NCBI RefSeq assembly: GCF_003336205.1
Contig: NZ_QPIE01000003.1
Coordinates: forward strand, 124,001-188,000
Direction: 5' to 3'
DNA length: 64,000 bases
Source of the DNA: Chryseobacterium lacus
GTDB lineage: Bacteria; Bacteroidota; Bacteroidia; Flavobacteriales; Weeksellaceae
Below are positions 8,535 to 19,216 of the stretch, piece by piece. Made by a program: the position numbers and the translations under genes. The notes under the pieces were generated by a model. The model did not search any database. It had not been told where the DNA came from and was given only the letters and a program-made list of their open reading frames with translations. Within the stretch, counting starts at the first letter, position 1, and the number at the start of each line of letters is the position of its first letter.

Positions 8535-9128
8535 ATGTTTTTAGAAAATACAATAAATCATTCCAGACAGAGCGGATGGATGGAAGTGATCTGCGGATCT
8601 ATGTTTTCCGGCAAAACCGAGGAGCTTATCCGCAGGTTGCGCAGGGCAGAAATGGCAGGCCAGAATGTGGAAATTTTCAAGCCTAAACTGGATACCCGAT
8701 ATGACGAAATAGAAGTAGTATCCCATAATCTTAATAAAATCAGAAGCACGCCCGTAGAAAGTTCCAACGAAATTCTGCTTCTCGGTTCTACCTGCGATGT
8801 CGTTGGGATTGATGAAGCACAGTTTTTCGATTCCGGAATTGTAGAAGTAGCCAATGCACTGGCGAATGAAGGCGTCCGAGTGGTGATCGCCGGATTGGAT
8901 ATGGATTTTCTGGGACGCCCGTTTGGTTCAATGCCTAATCTCATGGCGACAGCAGAGTATGTAACCAAAGTACACGCCATCTGCAAACGCACGGGAAATC
9001 TCGCCAATTACTCTTTGACAATCAGCCAAGGAAAAGATCTTGTGGAACTTGGGGAAACAGAAAGTTATGAAGCGGTAAGCAGACGCGTTTTTGTGGAAGA
9101 AATACTGAAAAACAATCCCACACCATGA
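8535..9128 (+). CDS. tdk: Thymidine kinase
   Basis: A 197-residue type II thymidine kinase that makes dTMP from thymidine with ATP (salvage). The P-loop GSMFSGKT is at residues 21-28, the DEAQFF block with the catalytic Glu94 at 93-98, and the lasso region follows RTGNLANYS. The zinc-ribbon cysteines that stabilise the lasso in E. coli Tdk are missing: only C150 remains where CxxC is expected, and SYEAVSRRVF replaces the second Cys pair. Its TGA overlaps the ATG of murF-alr by 4 bp (ATGA), so it leads a coupled operon. An in-frame MEVICGSM start at residue 16 is possible. Confidence 0.92.
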   Translation: MFLENTINHSRQSGWMEVICGSMFSGKTEELIRRLRRAEMAGQNVEIFKPKLDTRYDEIEVVSHNLNKIRSTPVESSNEILLLGSTCDVVGIDEAQFFDSGIVEVANALANEGVRVVIAGLDMDFLGRPFGSMPNLMATAEYVTKVHAICKRTGNLANYSLTISQGKDLVELGETESYEAVSRRVFVEEILKNNPTP

Positions 9129-11572
9129 ACTATACTGCGAGACAAATGGCCTCTATTACTGGAAGTCAACTGATAGGAGACGGAGGACGAATGGTGCAGA
9201 ACATTGCTTTCGACAGCAGAATATTGTTTTCGGTACAGCAGACGGCATTCATCGCCATTAATACTTCAAAAAACAGCGGCGAGAAGTATATCAACACTGC
9301 TGTGGAAGCTGGAGTACAAGTAATTATCTCTGAACATGAAGTCCCGGTCAACAAATCTGTTACGCTAATCATCACAGAAAATTCCATAACATTCCTGCAA
9401 AAATTGGCGAAATATCATCTGCAGCAGTTTCCGGGTTTAAAAACCATCGGAATCACCGGTAGCAATGGGAAAACGATTGTAAAAGAGTGGCTGTATCAGT
9501 GTCTTTGTAGCGAATTCAGTACTGTAAAAAGTCCGAAAAGTTTCAATTCTCAAATAGGATTACCGGTTTCTTTATTGCAAATAGATGAACGGCATCAGTT
9601 GGGAATTTTTGAAGCGGGAATTTCCAAACCGGGAGAGATGGAAAAACTAGAAGCGATTTTTTCTCCTGAAATCGGTATTCTCACGCATATCGGAACCGCA
9701 CATTCTGCTCATTTTGATTCTGAAGAACAATTAATCGATGAAAAAATAAAGTTATTTCAGCATTCCGGTATCATTATATTTAATGGAGATAAAGAAAACG
9801 TTTACAATAAAATACATCAGGTTTACTCAAGTAAGAAATTAATATCGTATGGCCTTTGCCAACATAATGACCTTCACATAATTTCCGAGCCTGGCTCGCA
9901 CCAAATTACAGTGTCATTTGCCGGTAGTATATTTTCATTTCCTGTTCAGGCAACCGATGAAGCCACACTCACGAATGCATTGGCCATTATCGCTGTTTTA
10001 AAAGAATTAAAATTCAGTAACCAGCAGATTATTGAGAAGCTGAATGCACTGAAATCGGTAGAAATGAGGCTGGAAAGCATCAACGGAATTCATGATAATT
10101 TAATCATTAACGATTCTTACAATCTGGATCTGGACTCTCTTAAAATTGCTTTCCAGTTCATCAACGAATATAATAAAGATAAAAAAATACTGGTCTTGAC
10201 GGATATTGTAGAAGCACGGGAAGATCCGGAAGGAATTTATACCGAGGCAGCACGATTGGTGAATGAACAGAAATTCCACAAGGTTTTTCTTATTGGCGAA
10301 GGAATATCAAAATTTAGTGAACTGTTTCATACTGAAACCTCTACTTTTAATACAACTGAGCAATTAATTGAAAGTCAGGAGATTTTGAAGATATATAATT
10401 CCCTTATCCTTTTGAAAGGAGCGAGGAAATTTGAAATTGAGAAACTGAAAAATATTCTTGAATTGCAGAAACATGATACAGTGATGGAGGTCAATCTGCA
10501 TGCAATTCTCAACAATATCAATGTGCACCGAACACTACTAAAACCCGAAACGAAAATTATGGCGATGGTAAAAGCGTATTCCTACGGACTTGGTGGCTAT
10601 GAAATTGCGGAGTTTCTACAACATCACCACATTGATTATCTTGGTGTTGCGTATGCAGACGAAGGCGCTGAGCTCAGGAAAAAGGGAATTACCACGCCCA
10701 TCATCGTGATGAATCCAGAGCAGCACAGCTATAATGCAGTGATTGATTACAATTTAGAACCGGAAATCTACAGTTTCAGGGTGTTGGAACTGTTCTATAA
10801 AACCCTGCAGGAAAAGGGAGCGGACAGAAATTATCCCGTTCATATCAAATTAGAAACCGGAATGCAAAGACTGGGTTTTCATGCGCATGAATTAGACGAA
10901 CTTATTGAGAAACTAAATCAAATGAATCTGAAGGTAGCCAGTATTTTCAGTCATTTGTCATCAGCCGATGCAGAAGAAGAAAAAAAGTTTACCTTGCAGC
11001 AGATTAATACCTTTATCACCACTTCTGATTACCTGATTGCCGGAATTAAAGATCAACCTATTCGTCATATTCTGAATTCATCCGGAATCACGAATTTTCC
11101 TGAATATCAGTTGGATATGGTAAGAATTGGAATCGGAATGATGGGAATTTCGTCTCAGCCTGAAATTAAAAAACAACTACAAAGTGCTGTGGTATTAAAG
11201 ACCGTGATTTCTCAGATTTCGAAGGTTAAAAAAGGCGAAAGCGTAGGTTACAACAGAAATCATAAAACTCCAAAAGACACATTAATCGCGACCATTCCTG
11301 TTGGTTATGCTGACGGAATTCCAAGATTAATAGGAAACAGCGTTGGTTTTGTGGGAATCAAAGACAGGCTTTATCCTATCGTCGGAAATATTTGTATGGA
11401 TATGATGATGGTGGATCTTCAGGATGCTGACGATATACAGGAAGGCGATGAAGTGATTATTTTTAATTCTAATCCAAGCCTGGAAGAGTTTTCAAAATAT
11501 TGCAATACAATACCTTACGAAGTTTTAACCTCAATATCCCGACGGGTAAAAAGAATTTATATCAAAAAATGA
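9125..11572 (+). CDS. murF: Bifunctional MurF (UDP-MurNAc-tripeptide:D-Ala-D-Ala ligase) / alanine racemase
   Basis: An 815-residue fusion of two peptidoglycan enzymes. Residues 1-450 are MurF, with the ATP loop TGSNGKT at 111-117 and the motif NDSYN near 329-333, adding D-Ala-D-Ala to UDP-MurNAc-tripeptide. Residues 453-815 are a PLP-dependent alanine racemase, with the Schiff-base lysine K483 in MVKAYSYG and catalytic Tyr709 in SVGYNRNH, supplying D-Ala. Having both on one chain couples precursor supply to its use. The fusion is known in Bacteroidetes. The ATG overlaps the tdk stop, and the stop overlaps the next gene's ATG. Confidence 0.93.
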   Translation: MNYTARQMASITGSQLIGDGGRMVQNIAFDSRILFSVQQTAFIAINTSKNSGEKYINTAVEAGVQVIISEHEVPVNKSVTLIITENSITFLQKLAKYHLQQFPGLKTIGITGSNGKTIVKEWLYQCLCSEFSTVKSPKSFNSQIGLPVSLLQIDERHQLGIFEAGISKPGEMEKLEAIFSPEIGILTHIGTAHSAHFDSEEQLIDEKIKLFQHSGIIIFNGDKENVYNKIHQVYSSKKLISYGLCQHNDLHIISEPGSHQITVSFAGSIFSFPVQATDEATLTNALAIIAVLKELKFSNQQIIEKLNALKSVEMRLESINGIHDNLIINDSYNLDLDSLKIAFQFINEYNKDKKILVLTDIVEAREDPEGIYTEAARLVNEQKFHKVFLIGEGISKFSELFHTETSTFNTTEQLIESQEILKIYNSLILLKGARKFEIEKLKNILELQKHDTVMEVNLHAILNNINVHRTLLKPETKIMAMVKAYSYGLGGYEIAEFLQHHHIDYLGVAYADEGAELRKKGITTPIIVMNPEQHSYNAVIDYNLEPEIYSFRVLELFYKTLQEKGADRNYPVHIKLETGMQRLGFHAHELDELIEKLNQMNLKVASIFSHLSSADAEEEKKFTLQQINTFITTSDYLIAGIKDQPIRHILNSSGITNFPEYQLDMVRIGIGMMGISSQPEIKKQLQSAVVLKTVISQISKVKKGESVGYNRNHKTPKDTLIATIPVGYADGIPRLIGNSVGFVGIKDRLYPIVGNICMDMMMVDLQDADDIQEGDEVIIFNSNPSLEEFSKYCNTIPYEVLTSISRRVKRIYIKK

Positions 11573-13713
11573 CACGAAAAATTCTCTGGTTCACATTTCT
11601 TCTCATCTGCTCTTTTGGTAAAAGCCAGGTGAAGGAGGGATTTGTTCTGCCAGAGAATCCTAAAATTGGGCTTTCATTGTCTGGTGGCGGCGCGAAAGGT
11701 TTTGCGCATATCGGTGTTCTAAAAGTAATAGATTCATTGGGCATCAAAATAGATTATATTTCCGGAACCAGCATGGGTGCTATTATCGGTGGATTATATG
11801 CTGCGGGATATAGAGCGGATGAGATTGAAAAATTCGTGATGAAGACTGACTTTTACACCCTTATCGCCAATGAAAAAACGCGTCAGGAAACACCGTTCTT
11901 TTATAAAACTACGGACAAATATCTTCTCACCTTGCCTATTAAAAACGGGAAAGTGAATGTACTGCCAAAAGCTATTTCTACAGGCCAGAAAAACATTTAC
12001 GTTCTGGAAGAACTGTTCAAGAATGTTTCCCATATTACGGATTTTTCTGAACTTCCGATCCCTTTTTTATGTATAGCCACCAATCTCGAAAACGGAAAAA
12101 TGGAAATTTTTGAGGAAGGCGATCTGGTGAGTGCGATTATGGCCAGTTCGGCCTTTCCTTCTTTGATGGATCCGGTTCAGATCAATGACAGCCTTTACAT
12201 AGATGGAGCCATGACGCTCAATTTACCTTCGGAACCTTTGAAAAAAAAAGGAATAGATATCGTTATCGGGGTGGATCTCAGCCAGCCACTTACTCCGAAA
12301 GAACAGTTAAATTCAGTTCTTGCTATCTTCAACCAGATCATTGATTTTGGGATTAAAAAAGAAAATAAAAGACAATATGAGTTTACTGATATTACCATAA
12401 AGCCCGATCTTTCCGGACTCTCAGCAACAAGCTATAGCGATAAAGAAAAAATTCTCCAGTCAGGATATTATGAAACATTGAAATACGCCTCTGTTTTGAG
12501 CAAACTTCCGAAACGGGAATCACCACTGAGAAGTTCCGTGCATTCGGTGTTTTCCAATGTGTATAAAATTGATCAGCTGATTCTTGAAAATAATAACATT
12601 TTCGATCAAAATTACATACAAGGTAAAATGAACCTAAAATTGCCGTCTCTTCAAACGTATGGAAGCATTAATAAAATGATCGGTAAACTCTATGCTACAA
12701 ACAATTATTATACGATCAATTACGATATCATTCAACAGAATAACGAGAATCATTTAAAGTTAATTCTAAGTGAAGTAGACACCCGGTTTTTCCTGAAAGC
12801 AGGACTGCATTATGATGAAGTTTTCAAAACCGGACTTCTGCTGAATGCCACTATAAAAAGGCTCTTATTTAAAAATTCGATTATTTCTCTAGATTTAATT
12901 GTGGGAGATAAACCTCGTTATTATTTTAATTATTTTATCGACAACGGTTATATTCCGGGATTTGGAGTGTACTCGTCAGGAATGTCATTTGATTTCGCAG
13001 ACGGAAATAACGAAAATATATCATGGAATTGGTTTAGAAACGATGTTTTTATTCAATCAGTGTGGAGAGATAAGTTTGCTGTCGGCGGAGGTTTTAATCA
13101 TGAATACTTCAAAACCAATCTGCATAGTACAGGGAACTTTATCAATCCTTATGTTTTTATAAAAAGTGATACCCGGGACGACAGAAATTTCCCTTCACGA
13201 GGGTTTTTTATGGATATTAATGGAAAATATCTGGATTTCTTTAATGACAATCCCGAGAAAAAAACTTTTCAAACTAAAGCACTGCTTAATTTTAACTTTC
13301 CACTAACACAAAGTTTAACATATCAGTTAAGCTTCTTTGGAGGCATCACTGCAAACAAAGAAATTTCGCCATATTATAAGTATAGAGCAGGTGGAATTTT
13401 TGAGCAGGAATTAGGAAATTTTACCTCATTTCCAGGAATGAAACTGGCTGAAATAAGTAATGATAATATGATGAGTGTATCTCAAACGGCCCAATTCCGA
13501 TTTCAAAAAAACTTTTTTATTGCAGGTAATTTCAATATGCTCACTGTTTTTGATGAAGTCCGAATTAGAGATATGTTGCATATTCATTATATTTCAGGCG
13601 GGTTGTCTGTAGGATACCGCTCTCCTTTGGGGCCGGTAAAAATTAATTATAGCATGATGATTAATAAGAAAAAAAGTGGAATTTTCAATATCATGCTCGG
13701 ACATTGGTTTTAA
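11569..13713 (+). CDS. Patatin-like phospholipase with C-terminal outer-membrane barrel
   Basis: A 714-residue protein from ATG 11569, which overlaps the murF-alr stop by 4 bp. A signal peptide covers about residues 1-20 (hydrophobic core ILWFTFLLICSFG). The patatin lipase domain has the oxyanion GGGAKG at 39-44, the nucleophile S68 in GTSMG and D212 in the DGA motif. After about residue 330 comes a POTRA-like segment and then an aromatic-rich beta-barrel with the RDDRNFPSRGFFMD block typical of BamA/bacterial surface antigen domains. The layout matches the PlpD-type surface or self-secreting lipases. An upstream ATG at 11500 would lie inside murF-alr and would mask the signal peptide. Confidence 0.88.
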   Translation: MTRKILWFTFLLICSFGKSQVKEGFVLPENPKIGLSLSGGGAKGFAHIGVLKVIDSLGIKIDYISGTSMGAIIGGLYAAGYRADEIEKFVMKTDFYTLIANEKTRQETPFFYKTTDKYLLTLPIKNGKVNVLPKAISTGQKNIYVLEELFKNVSHITDFSELPIPFLCIATNLENGKMEIFEEGDLVSAIMASSAFPSLMDPVQINDSLYIDGAMTLNLPSEPLKKKGIDIVIGVDLSQPLTPKEQLNSVLAIFNQIIDFGIKKENKRQYEFTDITIKPDLSGLSATSYSDKEKILQSGYYETLKYASVLSKLPKRESPLRSSVHSVFSNVYKIDQLILENNNIFDQNYIQGKMNLKLPSLQTYGSINKMIGKLYATNNYYTINYDIIQQNNENHLKLILSEVDTRFFLKAGLHYDEVFKTGLLLNATIKRLLFKNSIISLDLIVGDKPRYYFNYFIDNGYIPGFGVYSSGMSFDFADGNNENISWNWFRNDVFIQSVWRDKFAVGGGFNHEYFKTNLHSTGNFINPYVFIKSDTRDDRNFPSRGFFMDINGKYLDFFNDNPEKKTFQTKALLNFNFPLTQSLTYQLSFFGGITANKEISPYYKYRAGGIFEQELGNFTSFPGMKLAEISNDNMMSVSQTAQFRFQKNFFIAGNFNMLTVFDEVRIRDMLHIHYISGGLSVGYRSPLGPVKINYSMMINKKKSGIFNIMLGHWF

Positions 13714-13716
13714 ATT

Positions 13717-14130
13717 ATGATACAGTTTTTCTTTGAAAATACCGACGAGATCGCACTTAATCCGGACATAATAAGCTGGTTGAAGGAAGTAATAATAAGC
13801 GAGAATAAAAAACCCGGAATTCTGAATTTCATTTTATGTAATGATGCCTACCTGCTCGAAATCAACCGGCAGTACCTTCAGCATGATTACTTTACCGATA
13901 TTATTTCCTTCGATTACACCAAGGGTAAAATCATTAGCGGTGATATTTTCGTATCTTTGCAGCGCATTTCAGAGAATGCCTCACAGTTTGATTCAGGTTT
14001 TGAAGAAGAACTAAAACGAGTGTTGGTTCACGGTATTCTGCATCTTTGCGGATATCATGATAAGACTGAAGCTGAAATAAATGAAATGCGAAGCAAGGAA
14101 AATTACTACTTAAAAACATTTCCTTTATAA
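13717..14130 (+). CDS. ybeY: Endoribonuclease YbeY
   Basis: A 137-residue single-strand endoribonuclease involved in 16S rRNA 3'-end maturation and ribosome quality control. The zinc-binding signature is seen near the C-terminus as HGILHLCGYHD, and DIISFDY earlier in the chain is also family-typical. It follows the patatin gene by 3 bp and precedes the first parS-like site. The length is a little under that of E. coli YbeY, as usual for this phylum. Confidence 0.9.
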   Translation: MIQFFFENTDEIALNPDIISWLKEVIISENKKPGILNFILCNDAYLLEINRQYLQHDYFTDIISFDYTKGKIISGDIFVSLQRISENASQFDSGFEEELKRVLVHGILHLCGYHDKTEAEINEMRSKENYYLKTFPL

Positions 14131-14131
14131 A

Positions 14132-14147
14132 TGTTTCACGTGAAACA
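14132..14147. promoter_or_regulatory. parS-like site 1
   Basis: TGTTTCACGTGAAACA, a perfect 16-bp palindrome matching the broadly conserved chromosomal parS (ParB-binding) consensus. The palindrome extends to 22 bp (14129-14150). It lies in the 38-bp gap between ybeY and mnmG. Function is inferred from the motif. Confidence 0.85.
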
Positions 14148-14168
14148 TTTCACTTTAAATTCAAATGA

Positions 14169-16031
14169 ATGATTAGCGAAATATATGATGTAATCGTTGT
14201 TGGAGGCGGACATGCCGGTTGCGAAGCTGCTGCTGCCGCAGCCAATTTAGGCTCCAAAACGCTTCTGGTGACCATGAATATGCAAACCATCGGACAAATG
14301 AGCTGCAATCCTGCTATGGGCGGTATTGCAAAGGGACAAATTGTTAGGGAAATAGATGCTATGGGTGGATACTCCGGTATCATTGCCGATAAATCTGCAA
14401 TCCAGTTTAAAATGCTCAACCTTTCAAAAGGCCCCGCAATGTGGTCTCCCCGTACGCAAAATGACAGAATGCTGTTCGCCGAAGAATGGAGATTAGCTCT
14501 GGAAAATACACCAAATCTTGACTTTTTTCAGGATATGGTTAAAAACCTTATTGTTGAAAATCACACCGTCAAAGGGATCATCACCTCTCTGGGAATTGAA
14601 ATAAAAGCCAAATCCGTTATTTTGACGAACGGTACTTTTCTCAACGGGTTAATTCACGTGGGAGACAAGCAGTTAGGCGGAGGAAGAATGGGCGAACCAC
14701 GATCTTTCGGAATTACAGAACAACTCACTTCTCTGGGTTTCGAAGCAGGAAGAATGAAAACCGGTACACCGCCAAGAATTGACGGGAGAACACTGGATTA
14801 TTCACAGATGGAGGAACAAAAAGGCGATGAAAATCCTGGAAAATTCTCGTTTCTGGATACGCCTTTATTGAAAGAACAACGCAGCTGTCATATCGTTTAT
14901 ACAAATGAAAAAGTCCATGATATTCTGCGGGAAGGATTCGACAGAAGCCCTATGTTTAATGGGACAATACAAAGTCTTGGGCCCCGCTATTGTCCAAGTA
15001 TTGAAGATAAGATCAACCGTTTTGCAGAGCGAAACCGACACCAGTTATTTGTAGAACCTGAAGGCTGGAAAACGGTGGAAGTGTATGTCAACGGATTCAG
15101 CTCTTCCCTTCCGGAAGACGTACAGATACGGGCCTTACGCGAAATACCGGGCTTCACAAATGTAAAAGTATTCAGACCCGGTTATGCAATCGAATATGAC
15201 TATTTCCCTCCTACCCAACTACAGCATTCATTGGAAACAAAACTGATAGAAAACCTGTATTTTGCAGGGCAAATTAACGGCACTACCGGTTACGAAGAAG
15301 CTGCAGGACAGGGATTAATTGCCGGAATCAATGCGCACAATAAAGTTCACGGAAAAGAGGAATTCATTCTGAACAGAGATGAAGCCTACATTGGTGTACT
15401 TATCGACGATCTGATTACCAAAGGTACCGACGAACCTTACCGGATGTTTACTTCTAGAGCTGAATACCGCCTCCTTTTAAGACAGGATAATGCGGATATA
15501 AGACTGACAGAAAAATCGTACAAAATAGGCCTTGCAACAGAAGAAAGGTTAAGAAAAACAGAAGAAAAAATATTCAAATCAAAGGAGTTAGAAACATTTC
15601 TCAGAGAAACTTCGCTGAAACCTGCCATCATCAACCCTATTCTACAGGAAATGGAAAGCAGCCCTGTAGATCAGGCGTATAAAGCCGCGCAAATTCTTAC
15701 CCGCCCAAACATTAATTTAAATACACTAGATCGTATTGATTTTATTGAAAATAAATCGAAAGAATATACTACCGAAGTTCGGGAACAGGCAGAAATTAAC
15801 ATCAAATACAAAGGGTATATTGATAAGGAAAGGGAAAATGTATCCAAACTTCACCGTATGGAAAATATTAAAATTCCTGAAGATTTTGACTTTACCAAAA
15901 TTGCATCACTATCTGCGGAAGCGAAAATAAAAATGAATGCAGTAAAACCTAAAACCATTGCTCAAGCTTCCCGAATCAGTGGTGTTTCTCCTGCAGATAT
16001 CAATGTTCTTTTAATCTATCTGGGAAGATAG
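14169..16031 (+). CDS. mnmG: tRNA uridine-5-carboxymethylaminomethyl modification enzyme MnmG
   Basis: A 620-residue FAD enzyme (GidA). With MnmE it installs cmnm5 at U34 of tRNAs reading NNA/NNG codons. The FAD-binding dinucleotide fold is at the start (VVVGGGHAGCEAA). The family blocks CNPAMGGIAKG, NGTFLNGLIHVG, MKTGTPPR and FAGQINGTTGYEEAAGQG are all present, as is the C-terminal helical domain. Length is standard. Its neighbours on both sides are parS-like palindromes, recalling the gidA-parA-parB neighbourhood near many bacterial origins, although parAB is not in this window. Confidence 0.95.
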   Translation: MISEIYDVIVVGGGHAGCEAAAAAANLGSKTLLVTMNMQTIGQMSCNPAMGGIAKGQIVREIDAMGGYSGIIADKSAIQFKMLNLSKGPAMWSPRTQNDRMLFAEEWRLALENTPNLDFFQDMVKNLIVENHTVKGIITSLGIEIKAKSVILTNGTFLNGLIHVGDKQLGGGRMGEPRSFGITEQLTSLGFEAGRMKTGTPPRIDGRTLDYSQMEEQKGDENPGKFSFLDTPLLKEQRSCHIVYTNEKVHDILREGFDRSPMFNGTIQSLGPRYCPSIEDKINRFAERNRHQLFVEPEGWKTVEVYVNGFSSSLPEDVQIRALREIPGFTNVKVFRPGYAIEYDYFPPTQLQHSLETKLIENLYFAGQINGTTGYEEAAGQGLIAGINAHNKVHGKEEFILNRDEAYIGVLIDDLITKGTDEPYRMFTSRAEYRLLLRQDNADIRLTEKSYKIGLATEERLRKTEEKIFKSKELETFLRETSLKPAIINPILQEMESSPVDQAYKAAQILTRPNINLNTLDRIDFIENKSKEYTTEVREQAEINIKYKGYIDKERENVSKLHRMENIKIPEDFDFTKIASLSAEAKIKMNAVKPKTIAQASRISGVSPADINVLLIYLGR

Positions 16032-16039
16032 GTACTGAT

Positions 16040-16055
16040 TGTTTCACGTGAAACA
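16040..16055. promoter_or_regulatory. parS-like site 2
   Basis: A second perfect TGTTTCACGTGAAACA, 8 bp after the mnmG stop and identical to the site at 14132. The two are 1.9 kb apart and bracket mnmG exactly. Confidence 0.85.
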
Positions 16056-16070
16056 TTGTTAAATATTCAA

Positions 16071-16886
16071 ATGAAAATTAAAGATTTATTTTTAACGCAG
16101 GAGGAGTTTATGCTCGCAGAAACTCCAGTTCCTGGAATTTTAAAAACCACTCCAGTTCCATCGAATATTGAGAAATATTATGAATCTGAACAATATATCT
16201 CCCATCATCAGGATAGCAACAGTTTCAAAGATAAACTCTATAAGTTCGCACAATATTTTAATTTGAATTACAAAAGAAATACTCTGGTTGCGGAAACCTT
16301 CCGTAATGCACACGTATTGGATTATGGCTGCGGTGCCGGTGAATTTGTGAAATATATTGAAGATGAATTTACTACGTTTGGATACGAACCTAATGCTTCT
16401 GCCCGCTCCTCTGCTACACGAAAAACAAGCAAAGCACAGATTATTGATGATATTAATAGTCTGGATAATTCTTTAGATGTCATCACATTATGGCACGTAC
16501 TGGAACATATAGAAGATCAGGAAACAATTTTAAAAGTATTCCATCAAAAACTGAAAGAAAATGGTAAACTGATCATCGCAGTTCCGAACTATGCGTCTTA
16601 TGATGCAAAATATTATAAGGAATTTTGGGCAGCGTATGACGTGCCAAGACATCTGTACCATTTTTCAAAAAAAGGAATGGAACAGATTTTTAACACCCAC
16701 GAATGGAAACTTAAAAAAATAAAACCTCTTTTTCTGGATGCTTTCTATATTTCGATTTTGAGTGAAAAATATAAAAAAAATCCTCTCTTTTTATTAAAAG
16801 GAGGATTCATCGGAGCGATTTCTAATTTTAAAGCATCAAAAACCGGCGAATTTTCTAGTTTGATATATATTATCGAAAAAAAATAG
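16071..16886 (+). CDS. Class I SAM-dependent methyltransferase
   Basis: A 271-residue methyltransferase. Motif I is VLDYGCGAGEFVKY (about residues 86-99), and WHVLEHIED (about 142-150) is the post-II segment typical of the methyltransferase-11/23 group. The N-terminus (KTTPVPSNIEKYYESEQYIS) is characteristic of a Bacteroidetes family whose substrate is unknown. Start: the ATG at 16071 is preferred over an in-frame TTG at 16056, which directly abuts the parS-like site. It ends the tdk-to-mnmG run and is closed by a bidirectional terminator. A tRNA or rRNA target is possible from context but not shown. Confidence 0.85.
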   Translation: MKIKDLFLTQEEFMLAETPVPGILKTTPVPSNIEKYYESEQYISHHQDSNSFKDKLYKFAQYFNLNYKRNTLVAETFRNAHVLDYGCGAGEFVKYIEDEFTTFGYEPNASARSSATRKTSKAQIIDDINSLDNSLDVITLWHVLEHIEDQETILKVFHQKLKENGKLIIAVPNYASYDAKYYKEFWAAYDVPRHLYHFSKKGMEQIFNTHEWKLKKIKPLFLDAFYISILSEKYKKNPLFLLKGGFIGAISNFKASKTGEFSSLIYIIEKK

Positions 16887-16978: not shown

Positions 16979-18169
16979 TTAATCATTGATGGCGGCAATC
17001 CCGGGAAGTTCTTTTCCTTCCAAACTTTCCAACATAGCACCACCTCCGGTTGAAACATAAGAAACTTTTGATTCATATCCGTTCTGTTTCACAAACGCTA
17101 CACTATCGCCACCTCCTACTAAAGAAAAAGCACCAAGCCGGGTTGCTTCCGCAATACTATCACCTAAACGGATCGTTCCTGCGGCAAAATTCGGCATTTC
17201 AAAAACACCTACCGGACCATTCCACAATATCGTCCGTGAATTCATAATAATATCATGAAAAAGCTTTCGGGTTCTTGGTCCTACATCAAGCCCCATCCAG
17301 TTTTCAGGAATTTGGTAGGCATCTGATTCTTTTCGTTCAGCATCATTATTAAATTCATCTGCAGCAATAACGTCCACAGGAAGGCAAATTCTTACATTCA
17401 TCGATTTAGCTTTCGCAATAATTTCAAGAGCAAGGTCCATCTTATCCACCTCTACCAGCGAATTTCCTATATTTCCACCCAATGCTTTAATAAATGTAAA
17501 TGCCATTCCACCGCCGATGATCAGATGGTCAATAGCGGGAAGCATGTTCTCTATGATGGTAATTTTAGAAGAAACTTTAGAACCTCCAATTATCGCTGTC
17601 ACAGGTTTTTCCCCATTTTTAAGAACTTTATCAATAGCTTCAAGTTCTTTTGCCATCAGTAAACCGAAAAATTTAGTTTCAGGAAAATACTGAGCAATAA
17701 TCGCAGTAGAAGCGTGGGCTCTGTGCGCTGTTCCGAAAGCGTCATTTACATAAGCGTCTGCATATTTGGCGAGATTTTTAGCGAAAGTTACATCACCCTT
17801 TTCTTCCTCATCATAAAATCGGAGATTTTCCAAAAGCAAAATTTCACCAGGCTTCAGGTCTTTGGTCATATTCTCGGCATCTTCTCCGATACAATCGTGG
17901 CAGAACAAGACGGTTCTTCCCATAACATTTTCAATTTCATTAACCAGATTTTTCAGTGAAAATTCTTCCGTCTTCTTACCTTTAGGCCTTCCCAAATGCG
18001 TCATTAAAATCACCGATCCGCCATCGTTAAGTATTTTATCAATCGTAGGCTTTGCAGCAACAATCCTGGTGTTGTCCGTTACTTTTAAATCTGCGCTTTG
18101 AGGCACGTTGAAATCTACCCTTACCAGTGTTTTTTTGTCCTTGAAATTAAAATCATTTACAGTTTTCAT
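16979..18169 (-). CDS. pgk: Phosphoglycerate kinase
   Basis: A 396-residue glycolytic kinase converting 1,3-bisphosphoglycerate and ADP to 3-phosphoglycerate and ATP. Visible family blocks are the N-terminal VRVDFNVPQ, the LMTHLGRPKG loop, the NDAFGTAHRAHAS segment, WNGPVGVFE and the C-terminal GGGDSVAFV nucleotide loop. Length is standard. It is monocistronic and leftward, with a shared terminator at its 3' end and the candidate origin region immediately upstream of its ATG. Confidence 0.97.
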   Translation of the reverse strand: MKTVNDFNFKDKKTLVRVDFNVPQSADLKVTDNTRIVAAKPTIDKILNDGGSVILMTHLGRPKGKKTEEFSLKNLVNEIENVMGRTVLFCHDCIGEDAENMTKDLKPGEILLLENLRFYDEEEKGDVTFAKNLAKYADAYVNDAFGTAHRAHASTAIIAQYFPETKFFGLLMAKELEAIDKVLKNGEKPVTAIIGGSKVSSKITIIENMLPAIDHLIIGGGMAFTFIKALGGNIGNSLVEVDKMDLALEIIAKAKSMNVRICLPVDVIAADEFNNDAERKESDAYQIPENWMGLDVGPRTRKLFHDIIMNSRTILWNGPVGVFEMPNFAAGTIRLGDSIAEATRLGAFSLVGGGDSVAFVKQNGYESKVSYVSTGGGAMLESLEGKELPGIAAIND

Positions 18170-18590
18170 AGTGAAATTATATACCTACAAATTTAAGATT
18201 AAAAAACCCGATAAAAAATTTTGTCGAAACAATTTTATCCCACACCTGTCATTAACATTCATTTTAATTTTTTTTAATTATAATAAAAGATTTGAGTGAT
18301 GTTGTTGTTGAGTGTTCGGGAAAGTATGGATAAGTTTTTTAGCAGATTTAATAACAAGGAAACGTTACGGTTTTAAGATTTAGTTAACATTATAAACGCC
18401 TAATTTTTAATATTTAACAAGAGATATTAACAATTATGAATAACTTGTTGTAAAATATGTTGCGGAATATACGTCTATGGAGAACTTTCCAATTTCCAAG
18501 AACAAATAAGTAAAACTATGCTACAGAATTTCAACAATAAAAAAGCATTAGCCTTTTTAACTGAAAAATGAAAGAAAAACTTTGTCAGAC

Positions 18591-18599
18591 TTATCCACA
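18591..18599 (+). promoter_or_regulatory. DnaA box, perfect match
   Basis: TTATCCACA, the strong DnaA-binding nonamer, within the pgk-rpiB gap. Weaker boxes lie 266 bp to the left and 32 bp to the right. Confidence 0.6.
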
Positions 18600-18758
18600 T
18601 CAGTTTGATAGAAATTGCTCATATATTCACAAGGAATGTTGATGAATTACTTTCGCAAAACCACAATACAGGTACTTCGAACACATAATTTCTGACTGAA
18701 AAAAGGTTGAAACAGAAAATAAGCTTGTTAATAAAAATGATTATCAGTTCATAAACCT

Positions 18759-18766
18759 TAAATTTG
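18759..18766 (+). promoter_or_regulatory. Promoter -7 box for rpiB
   Basis: TAAATTTG fits TAnnTTTG, 22 bp before the ATG at 18788. No clear -33 box at the usual distance. Confidence 0.45.
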
Positions 18767-18787
18767 TAGAAACTCTGATAGACGAAC

Positions 18788-19216
18788 ATGAAAAAAATAG
18801 CAATAGCAGCCGATCATGCCGGTTTCGAATACAAAGAATATCTGAAAAAACAACTGGAAGGTTCTTATGAAATCACCGATTACGGAACCCATTCCGCAGA
18901 CAGTGTAGATTACCCGGATTTTGTACATCCTGCAGCTGCCTCAGTAGAAAATGGGGAAAATGAAGCAGGAATTTTGATTTGTGGAAGCGGACAAGGAGTA
19001 CAGCTAAGCGCCAACAAACACACAGGAATCCGGTGTGCGTTATGTTGGATGCCCGAATTAGCCATGCTTTCCAGACAGCATAACGACTGTAATATGATCG
19101 CCATTCCTGCGAGATTTATCGCCAAGGAACTGGCTCTGGAAATTGTGGAAAGATTTTTGAATACAGATTTTGAAGGTGGCAGACATCAGAAAAGAGTGGA
19201 TAAAATAAGCTGCTAA
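18788..19216 (+). CDS. rpiB: Ribose 5-phosphate isomerase B
   Basis: A 142-residue RpiB/LacAB-family isomerase that interconverts ribose-5-P and ribulose-5-P in the pentose phosphate pathway. It starts IAADHAGFEYKE, carries the active-site Cys loop LICGSGQGVQLSANK, and has RHQKRVDKI near its end, all typical. Length is standard. It heads the plus-strand block rpiB-rnr-membrane protein-lysE-ldcA-yraN; rnr starts 19 bp downstream. Confidence 0.93.
   Translation: MKKIAIAADHAGFEYKEYLKKQLEGSYEITDYGTHSADSVDYPDFVHPAAASVENGENEAGILICGSGQGVQLSANKHTGIRCALCWMPELAMLSRQHNDCNMIAIPARFIAKELALEIVERFLNTDFEGGRHQKRVDKISC

What the first reader, a model, noticed from the sequence alone, without database searches (positions are those of the whole stretch)
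18170..18787. Candidate chromosome origin between pgk and rpiB, away from dnaA
A 618-bp AT-rich gap has one perfect DnaA box TTATCCACA, two 8/9 boxes (18325 and 18623), long AT tracts, and two parS-like sites within about 4 kb. There is no other obvious function for a gap this long between two metabolic genes. This would place oriC beside mnmG and rpiB instead of dnaA.
Basis: partly seen in the sequence, partly recalled or inferred. Interest (0 to 1): 0.7.

Follow-up and report, generated by a model that had tools for sequence, protein, structure and literature searches.

The report
Chromosome replication origin, far from dnaA
The 618-base gap between two sugar-metabolism genes is very probably where this relative of Chryseobacterium starts copying its chromosome, far away from the initiator gene dnaA; similar origins have been predicted by others in this order of bacteria, so it is a well-supported but not revolutionary annotation.

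Summary
The gap 18170-18787 between pgk and rpiB is very probably the chromosomal oriC of this Weeksellaceae bacterium. Alone this is only mildly improbable; comparison decides it. The pgk-gap-rpiB layout with at least 550 bp is kept in 75 of 80 related loci. In 63 gaps shorter than 1 kb, exact boxes number 43 against 0.3 expected, about 30-fold denser than in other intergenic DNA. Where pgk and rpiB have split apart (G001, G002), boxes and parS stay with pgk, and the GC-skew minimum of G001 lies 8 kb from them. In three other complete relatives the skew minimum falls in the same region (within about 10-110 kb), while dnaA is about 0.6-2.2 Mb away. A conserved box-spacer-CAA-repeat-AT-tract module suggests how the duplex opens, with trinucleotides that deviate from the DnaA-trio consensus. 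Origins away from dnaA have already been predicted in Elizabethkingia and Flavobacteriaceae. No experiment exists.

The parts
18170..18787 (.). proposed oriC: intergenic region between divergent pgk and rpiB
   Evidence: 618 bp, no gene; layout kept in 75 of 80 related loci, gap never under 550 bp; DnaA-box enrichment
18591..18599 (+). DnaA box TTATCCACA, exact; strongest conserved box of the alignment
18325..18333 (-). DnaA box TTATCCATA (8/9); at the position of TTATCC[AC]CA in relatives; box of the unwinding-type module
18235..18244 (+). degenerate box-like TTATCCCACA (one extra base), aligned with [AT]TTCCACA / AATCCACA in relatives
   Evidence: alignment; inference
18623..18631 (+). weak box-like ATATTCACA (7/9), aligned with TTTTCACA-type sites in relatives
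   Evidence: sequence, alignment
18300..18312 (-). trinucleotide run CTCAACAACAACA (- strand), separated from the 18325 box by a spacer of 12-15 nt; candidate deviant DnaA-trio element
   Evidence: strict pattern in 58 of 76 gaps against 1.5 in shuffles; loose pattern 74 of 76
18261..18288 (.). 28-bp run of A/T only: candidate DNA unwinding element
   Evidence: only 4 of 63,971 30-bp windows are less stable; conserved T-tract/A-tract
18188..18195 (-). Bacteroidota-type -7 promoter element TAAATTTG of pgk
   Evidence: conserved ACAAATTTAAG; motif assignment from general knowledge
18759..18766 (+). Bacteroidota-type -7 promoter element TAAATTTG of rpiB
   Evidence: conserved TTAAATTTGT; motif assignment from general knowledge
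16040..16055 (+). parS, exact 16-mer, 2.1 kb from the gap
14132..14147 (+). parS, exact 16-mer, 4.0 kb from the gap
14169..16031 (+). mnmG (gidA), between the two parS sites
   Evidence: Pfam GIDA
16979..18169 (-). pgk, left neighbour
   Evidence: Pfam PGK
18788..19216 (+). rpiB, right neighbour
   Evidence: Pfam LacAB_rpiB

Best explanation
The gap is the chromosomal replication origin (oriC). Proposed mechanism: DnaA, made from a dnaA gene far away, binds the exact box at 18591 and the weaker boxes at 18325 and around it. From the 18325 box it extends over the CAA-type trinucleotides (18300-18312) and opens the adjacent A/T-only tract (18261-18288), where helicase is loaded and bidirectional replication starts. 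ParB bound at the two parS sites 2-4 kb away (around mnmG) then segregates the new origins. Shown here: the anatomy, its conservation, its link to parS and to the region where GC skew switches sign, and the absence of such features at dnaA. Inferred: DnaA binding, site of opening, helicase loading, ParB action.
For: 1) The pgk-gap-rpiB layout with 550 bp or more is kept in 75 of 80 related loci. 2) In the 63 gaps under 1 kb: 43 exact boxes against 0.3 expected, 199 boxes at up to 1 mismatch against 15; exact boxes 1.02/kb in gaps, 0.036/kb in other intergenic DNA and 0.008/kb in coding DNA of the same loci. 3) Where rpiB and pgk are separated (G001 52 kb, G002 40 kb), 5 and 4 boxes lie upstream of pgk and none upstream of rpiB, and parS stays with pgk/mnmG. 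4) The GC-skew minimum in G001 is at 146.7 kb, with the pgk-side cluster at 154.6 kb; in G032, G006 and G022 the minimum lies within about 10-110 kb of the gap, whereas dnaA lies well inside a replication arm or near the skew maximum. 5) The genome's only two parS sites are 2.1 and 4.0 kb away. 6) dnaA is on another contig without a box cluster. 7) No RNA family matches; only ORFs of at most 63 aa touch the gap. 8) In 13 loci with a 2.1-2.4-kb space, an ORF of about 490-540 aa sits next to rpiB and the boxes stay on the pgk side.
Against: In this genome's own contig the cumulative GC-skew minimum is 114 kb left of the gap, with a flat stretch between; the assembly is a 31-contig draft. Skew minima in G022 and G032 are 74 and about 104 kb from the gap. 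Synonymous-site skew is noisy and in G032 switches only between about 0.8 and 0.91 Mb. The window's gap holds fewer clear boxes than the average relative's gap. No read depth or biochemistry.
Confidence: 0.92

Rival explanations
1. The gap is only a long divergent promoter/regulatory region of pgk and rpiB, with DnaA boxes acting as a DnaA-controlled metabolic switch.
For: Both genes have conserved TAnnTTTG promoter elements at the two ends of the gap.
Against: The promoter elements lie within about 30 bp of the genes and leave over 500 bp unexplained. Boxes stay near pgk but tolerate a large ORF between them and rpiB. Co-location with parS and the skew switch is not explained.
Confidence: 0.03
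2. oriC is near dnaA, as in many bacteria, and the gap is a secondary DnaA-binding (titration) site.
For: dnaA-linked origins are common (general knowledge); several complete relatives are numbered from dnaA.
Against: No DnaA-box cluster around dnaA. dnaA lies inside a replication arm or near the skew maximum in G032, G022, G006 and G001. No parS near it.
Confidence: 0.01
3. The parAB locus, whose upstream region carries the only palindromic pair of exact DnaA boxes in the genome, is the origin.
For: TTATCCACA-N12-TGTGGATAA at G000:C1:58449-58478, conserved about once per genome in most of the family; parAB is often origin-linked in other bacteria (general knowledge).
Against: In complete relatives parB lies deep in a replication arm (G001 708 kb against skew minimum 147 kb; G032 1495 kb against about 0.6-0.7 Mb) and is not linked to parS.
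Confidence: 0.01
4. oriC is nearby (same parS/mnmG region, within tens of kb) but not in this gap.
For: Skew resolution is only about 10-110 kb; a gene-orientation switch also occurs at about 8.5 kb of the window.
Against: The gap stands out from the other intergenic DNA of the neighbourhood by massive conserved box enrichment.
Confidence: 0.03

Closest known systems
Predicted oriC of Elizabethkingia meningoseptica G4076 (PMC8994065)
   Same: Ori-Finder prediction of 649 bp with three TTATCCACA boxes (up to 1 mismatch), AT-rich elements, about 1.9 Mb in coordinates from dnaA; Elizabethkingia belongs to the same family (own knowledge)
   Different: Flanking genes are not stated in the passages read, so identity with the pgk-rpiB gap was not tested; single-genome prediction without the comparative test made here
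mnmG-linked oriC of Flavobacteriaceae (Mariniflexile litorale PMC11278836; Algorimicrobium PMC12843772)
   Same: Ori-Finder/GC skew place oriC beside mnmG; in Mariniflexile explicitly not at dnaA
   Different: Different family; the pgk-rpiB arrangement is not described. In relative G058, of another family, pgk and rpiB are about 23 kb apart
Basal unwinding system (BUS): DnaA boxes, spacer, DnaA-trios (PMC8287927, PMC6669920)
   Same: Box (often two in tandem), spacer of about 10-15 nt, trinucleotide repeats, then AT-rich DNA
   Different: Trinucleotides are mainly CAA/CAT (3'-GTT/GTA-5'), without the middle adenine of 3'-GAT-5'; that paper itself suspects such deviant trios exist
Chromosomal ParB-parS segregation system
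   Same: Exact TGTTTCACGTGAAACA sites near the origin, one ParB gene
   Different: parAB is not next to parS or oriC in this family

Membership tests
DnaA-dependent bacterial chromosomal oriC | Cluster of DnaA boxes beyond chance | tested here: met
   Window alone: P about 0.01-0.02; with relatives overwhelming
DnaA-dependent bacterial chromosomal oriC | AT-rich unwinding element beside the boxes | tested here: met
   18261-18288 all A/T, among the least stable stretches of the window; conserved
DnaA-dependent bacterial chromosomal oriC | Located at the GC-skew minimum | tested here: met
   Met regionally in complete relatives: 8 kb in G001, 74-104 kb in G022 and G032; inconclusive in the draft genome itself
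DnaA-dependent bacterial chromosomal oriC | Conserved position and architecture in relatives | tested here: met
   75 of 80 loci; boxes stay with pgk in rearranged genomes
DnaA-dependent bacterial chromosomal oriC | Intact DnaA encoded in the genome | tested here: met
   485-aa DnaA, G000:C26
DnaA-dependent bacterial chromosomal oriC | Replication actually initiates there | not testable with these tools
   needs read depth or experiment
BUS / DnaA-trio unwinding element | DnaA box (up to 2 mismatches), spacer, then trinucleotide repeat | tested here: met
   strict pattern 58 of 76 gaps against mean 1.5 in shuffles; loose 74 of 76, modal spacer 14-15 nt
BUS / DnaA-trio unwinding element | Trio consensus 3'-[G/A]A[T/A]-5' (middle adenine) | tested here: not met
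   repeat is CAA/AAC on the - strand; only some relatives start with CTA (3'-GAT-5')
Chromosomal parS | 16-bp TGTTTCACGTGAAACA, few copies, ParB encoded | tested here: met
   two exact copies, both beside mnmG; ParB at G000:C1

The most novel reading that the evidence does not exclude
Weeksellaceae origins open through a variant basal unwinding system in which DnaA engages CAA-type trinucleotides (3'-GTT-5', no middle adenine) next to a TTATCC[AC]CA box: the 'deviant DnaA-trio' that was suspected to exist.
Probability: 0.35. Interest if true: 0.55.

Novelty: new member of a known kind. Interest (0 to 1): 0.4.

Why it matters
It gives a sequence-level, comparatively supported oriC for much of a bacterial family (Chryseobacterium, Epilithonimonas, Riemerella, Bergeyella, Cloacibacterium and relatives), in which some complete genomes are numbered from dnaA, roughly 0.6-2.2 Mb from this gap. 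It allows growth-rate estimates from coverage, sensible numbering of genomes and tests of replication control. It also offers a conserved candidate for a DnaA-trio variant that can be tested in a simple strand-separation assay.

Tried and rejected
Window GC skew alone: two local minima, at about 8.5 and 18-19 kb; too coarse. Own-contig skew: inconclusive. Synonymous-site skew: noisy, affected by coding-strand bias. Genome-wide search for TGTTGT-N-GTGGATAA: too strict, hits the gap in only two genomes (G020, G018). A near-constant ~1.05 Mb oriC-dnaA distance seen in the first ten relatives did not hold in a larger set of complete genomes (about 0.6-2.2 Mb, worked out). Rfam on the gap: nothing. 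Simple promoter/terminator scan: nothing above shuffles.

Full report
WHAT IS THERE. The gap is 618 bp between the starts of the divergent genes pgk (16979-18169, -) and rpiB (18788-19216, +). It is 73% AT. Two exact parS 16-mers, TGTTTCACGTGAAACA, flank mnmG at 14132 and 16040, and no other site with up to one mismatch exists in the 2.38-Mb draft genome. First-order (dinucleotide) resampling gives P about 0.009 for an exact box and about 0.02 for two boxes with up to one mismatch in such a gap: suggestive, not proof. dnaA is on another contig, without a box cluster around it.

CONSERVATION. A scan of named genomes gave 80 rpiB loci, nearly all from Weeksellaceae genera (Chryseobacterium, Epilithonimonas, Riemerella, Bergeyella, Cloacibacterium, Soonwooa, Planobacterium and others). 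In 75 of them, as in the window, pgk and rpiB are divergent neighbours, and the space between them is never under 550 bp. In the 63 gaps under 1 kb (window included) there are 43 exact DnaA boxes (expected 0.3) and 199 with up to one mismatch (expected 15); all 63 have at least one. In the same loci exact boxes occur at 1.02 per kb in the gap, 0.036 in other intergenic DNA and 0.008 in coding DNA. Relatives are not independent, but neighbouring intergenic DNA shares the same ancestry and lacks the boxes. The alignment shows the same order: pgk promoter element, weak box, T-tract/A-tract, TGTTGTTG, box on the - strand, variable middle, strong box AGTTATCCACA on the + strand followed by a TTTTCACA-like site, rpiB promoter element.

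NATURAL EXPERIMENT. In two relatives pgk and rpiB have come apart: by about 52 kb in G001 and 40 kb in G002. The box cluster stays upstream of pgk (5 and 4 boxes at up to one mismatch in 620-640 bp) and there are none upstream of rpiB (sequences); the parS sites also stay with pgk/mnmG. In 13 loci of the Chryseobacterium group a large ORF (487-540 aa) lies between boxes and rpiB, and the boxes again stay on the pgk side. So the element is not simply the rpiB promoter.

GC SKEW. G001: cumulative GC minimum at 146.7 kb, pgk-side cluster at 154.6 kb, rpiB at 103 kb; maximum between 1.15 and 1.30 Mb, where the antipode of the cluster would be about 1.18 Mb; dnaA at 1.485 Mb. G032: negative from about 1.95 Mb through zero to 0.65 Mb, positive on the whole from 0.69 to 1.79 Mb; gap at 0.701 Mb, dnaA at 1.776 Mb near the maximum; at fine scale a broad valley with minimum at 598 kb and a second dip at the gap. 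G006: switch between 2.76 and 2.86 Mb, gap at 2.867 Mb. G022: minimum at 1.629 Mb, gap at 1.703 Mb. The own contig is uninformative to the left of the gap: the minimum is 114 kb away with flat skew between, while to the right of the gap the skew is positive overall. So skew places the origin in this region at 10-110 kb resolution and speaks against dnaA. In complete genomes of the family dnaA is about 0.6 to 2.2 Mb from pgk, usually in the terminus-side half (worked out; genome lengths rounded).

MECHANISM (INFERRED). On the - strand, 74 of 76 gaps show a DnaA-like box, a spacer (most often 14-15 nt), a CAA-type trinucleotide run and then about 82% AT DNA; a stricter pattern finds 58 of 76 against 1.5 in shuffles. 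In the window: TTATCCATA-ctttcccgaacactc-AACAACAACATC..., leading into 28 bp of pure A/T that is among the least stable stretches of the window. This is the layout of the basal unwinding system, for which the consensus trio is 3'-GAT-5' (PMC8287927; PMC7561715). Here the trinucleotides read 3'-GTT/GTA-5' and lack the middle adenine, so formal membership fails on that feature. PMC8287927 suspects that such deviant trios exist. I propose that DnaA loads at the box and extends over this run to open the A/T tract, and that ParB-parS then segregates the region. None of these steps was tested.

KNOWN OR NEW. Ori-Finder placed a 649-bp, three-box oriC far from dnaA in Elizabethkingia meningoseptica (PMC8994065), and mnmG-linked origins have been predicted in Flavobacteriaceae, once with the explicit remark that dnaA does not fit the skew (PMC11278836, PMC12843772). 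The present finding is therefore a new, better supported member of a known kind. New here, as far as the searches made show, are the family-wide comparative test, the split-locus evidence and the variant trinucleotide module.

RIVALS. A plain regulatory region, a dnaA-linked origin, a parAB-linked origin and a nearby but different site were considered. The first three conflict with box distribution, skew and parS; the last is limited only by skew resolution.

Noticed in passing
G000:C1:58449-58478 (locus L251:10449-10478), upstream of parA: A palindromic pair of exact DnaA boxes, TTATCCACA-N12-TGTGGATAA, about 110 bp upstream of parA (parA-parB-...-dapB-lepB). The pattern (spacer 11-15) occurs in 25 of 59 sampled genomes, 24 of them among the 36 of this family, almost always exactly once per genome (G003 twice), and beside parB in every genome where that was checked except G017 and G038. 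It may couple DnaA to chromosome partitioning or be a DnaA titration/reactivation site.
   Followed up: partly
complete relatives: dnaA is never near the proposed origin in complete genomes of the family (about 0.6-2.2 Mb away) and usually sits in the terminus-side half of the chromosome, so the initiator gene should be at low copy number in fast growth.
   Followed up: partly
L081, L088, L103, L111, L115-L117, L124-L126, L128, L130, L144: A large ORF (487-540 aa) sits between the origin boxes and rpiB in 13 loci of the Chryseobacterium group; its identity was not looked up.
   Followed up: no
G032:C1:712206, G008:C2:466820, G006:C1:2876886: In some relatives a third, imperfect parS lies about 10-15 kb on the other side of the gap, so that parS sites flank the origin. 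The window has no such third site at up to 3 mismatches.
   Followed up: no
window 8535-16886: The genes from the thymidine kinase gene to the methyltransferase gene beside mnmG run towards the proposed origin, i.e. against the leftward fork; a head-on block right next to an origin.
   Followed up: no
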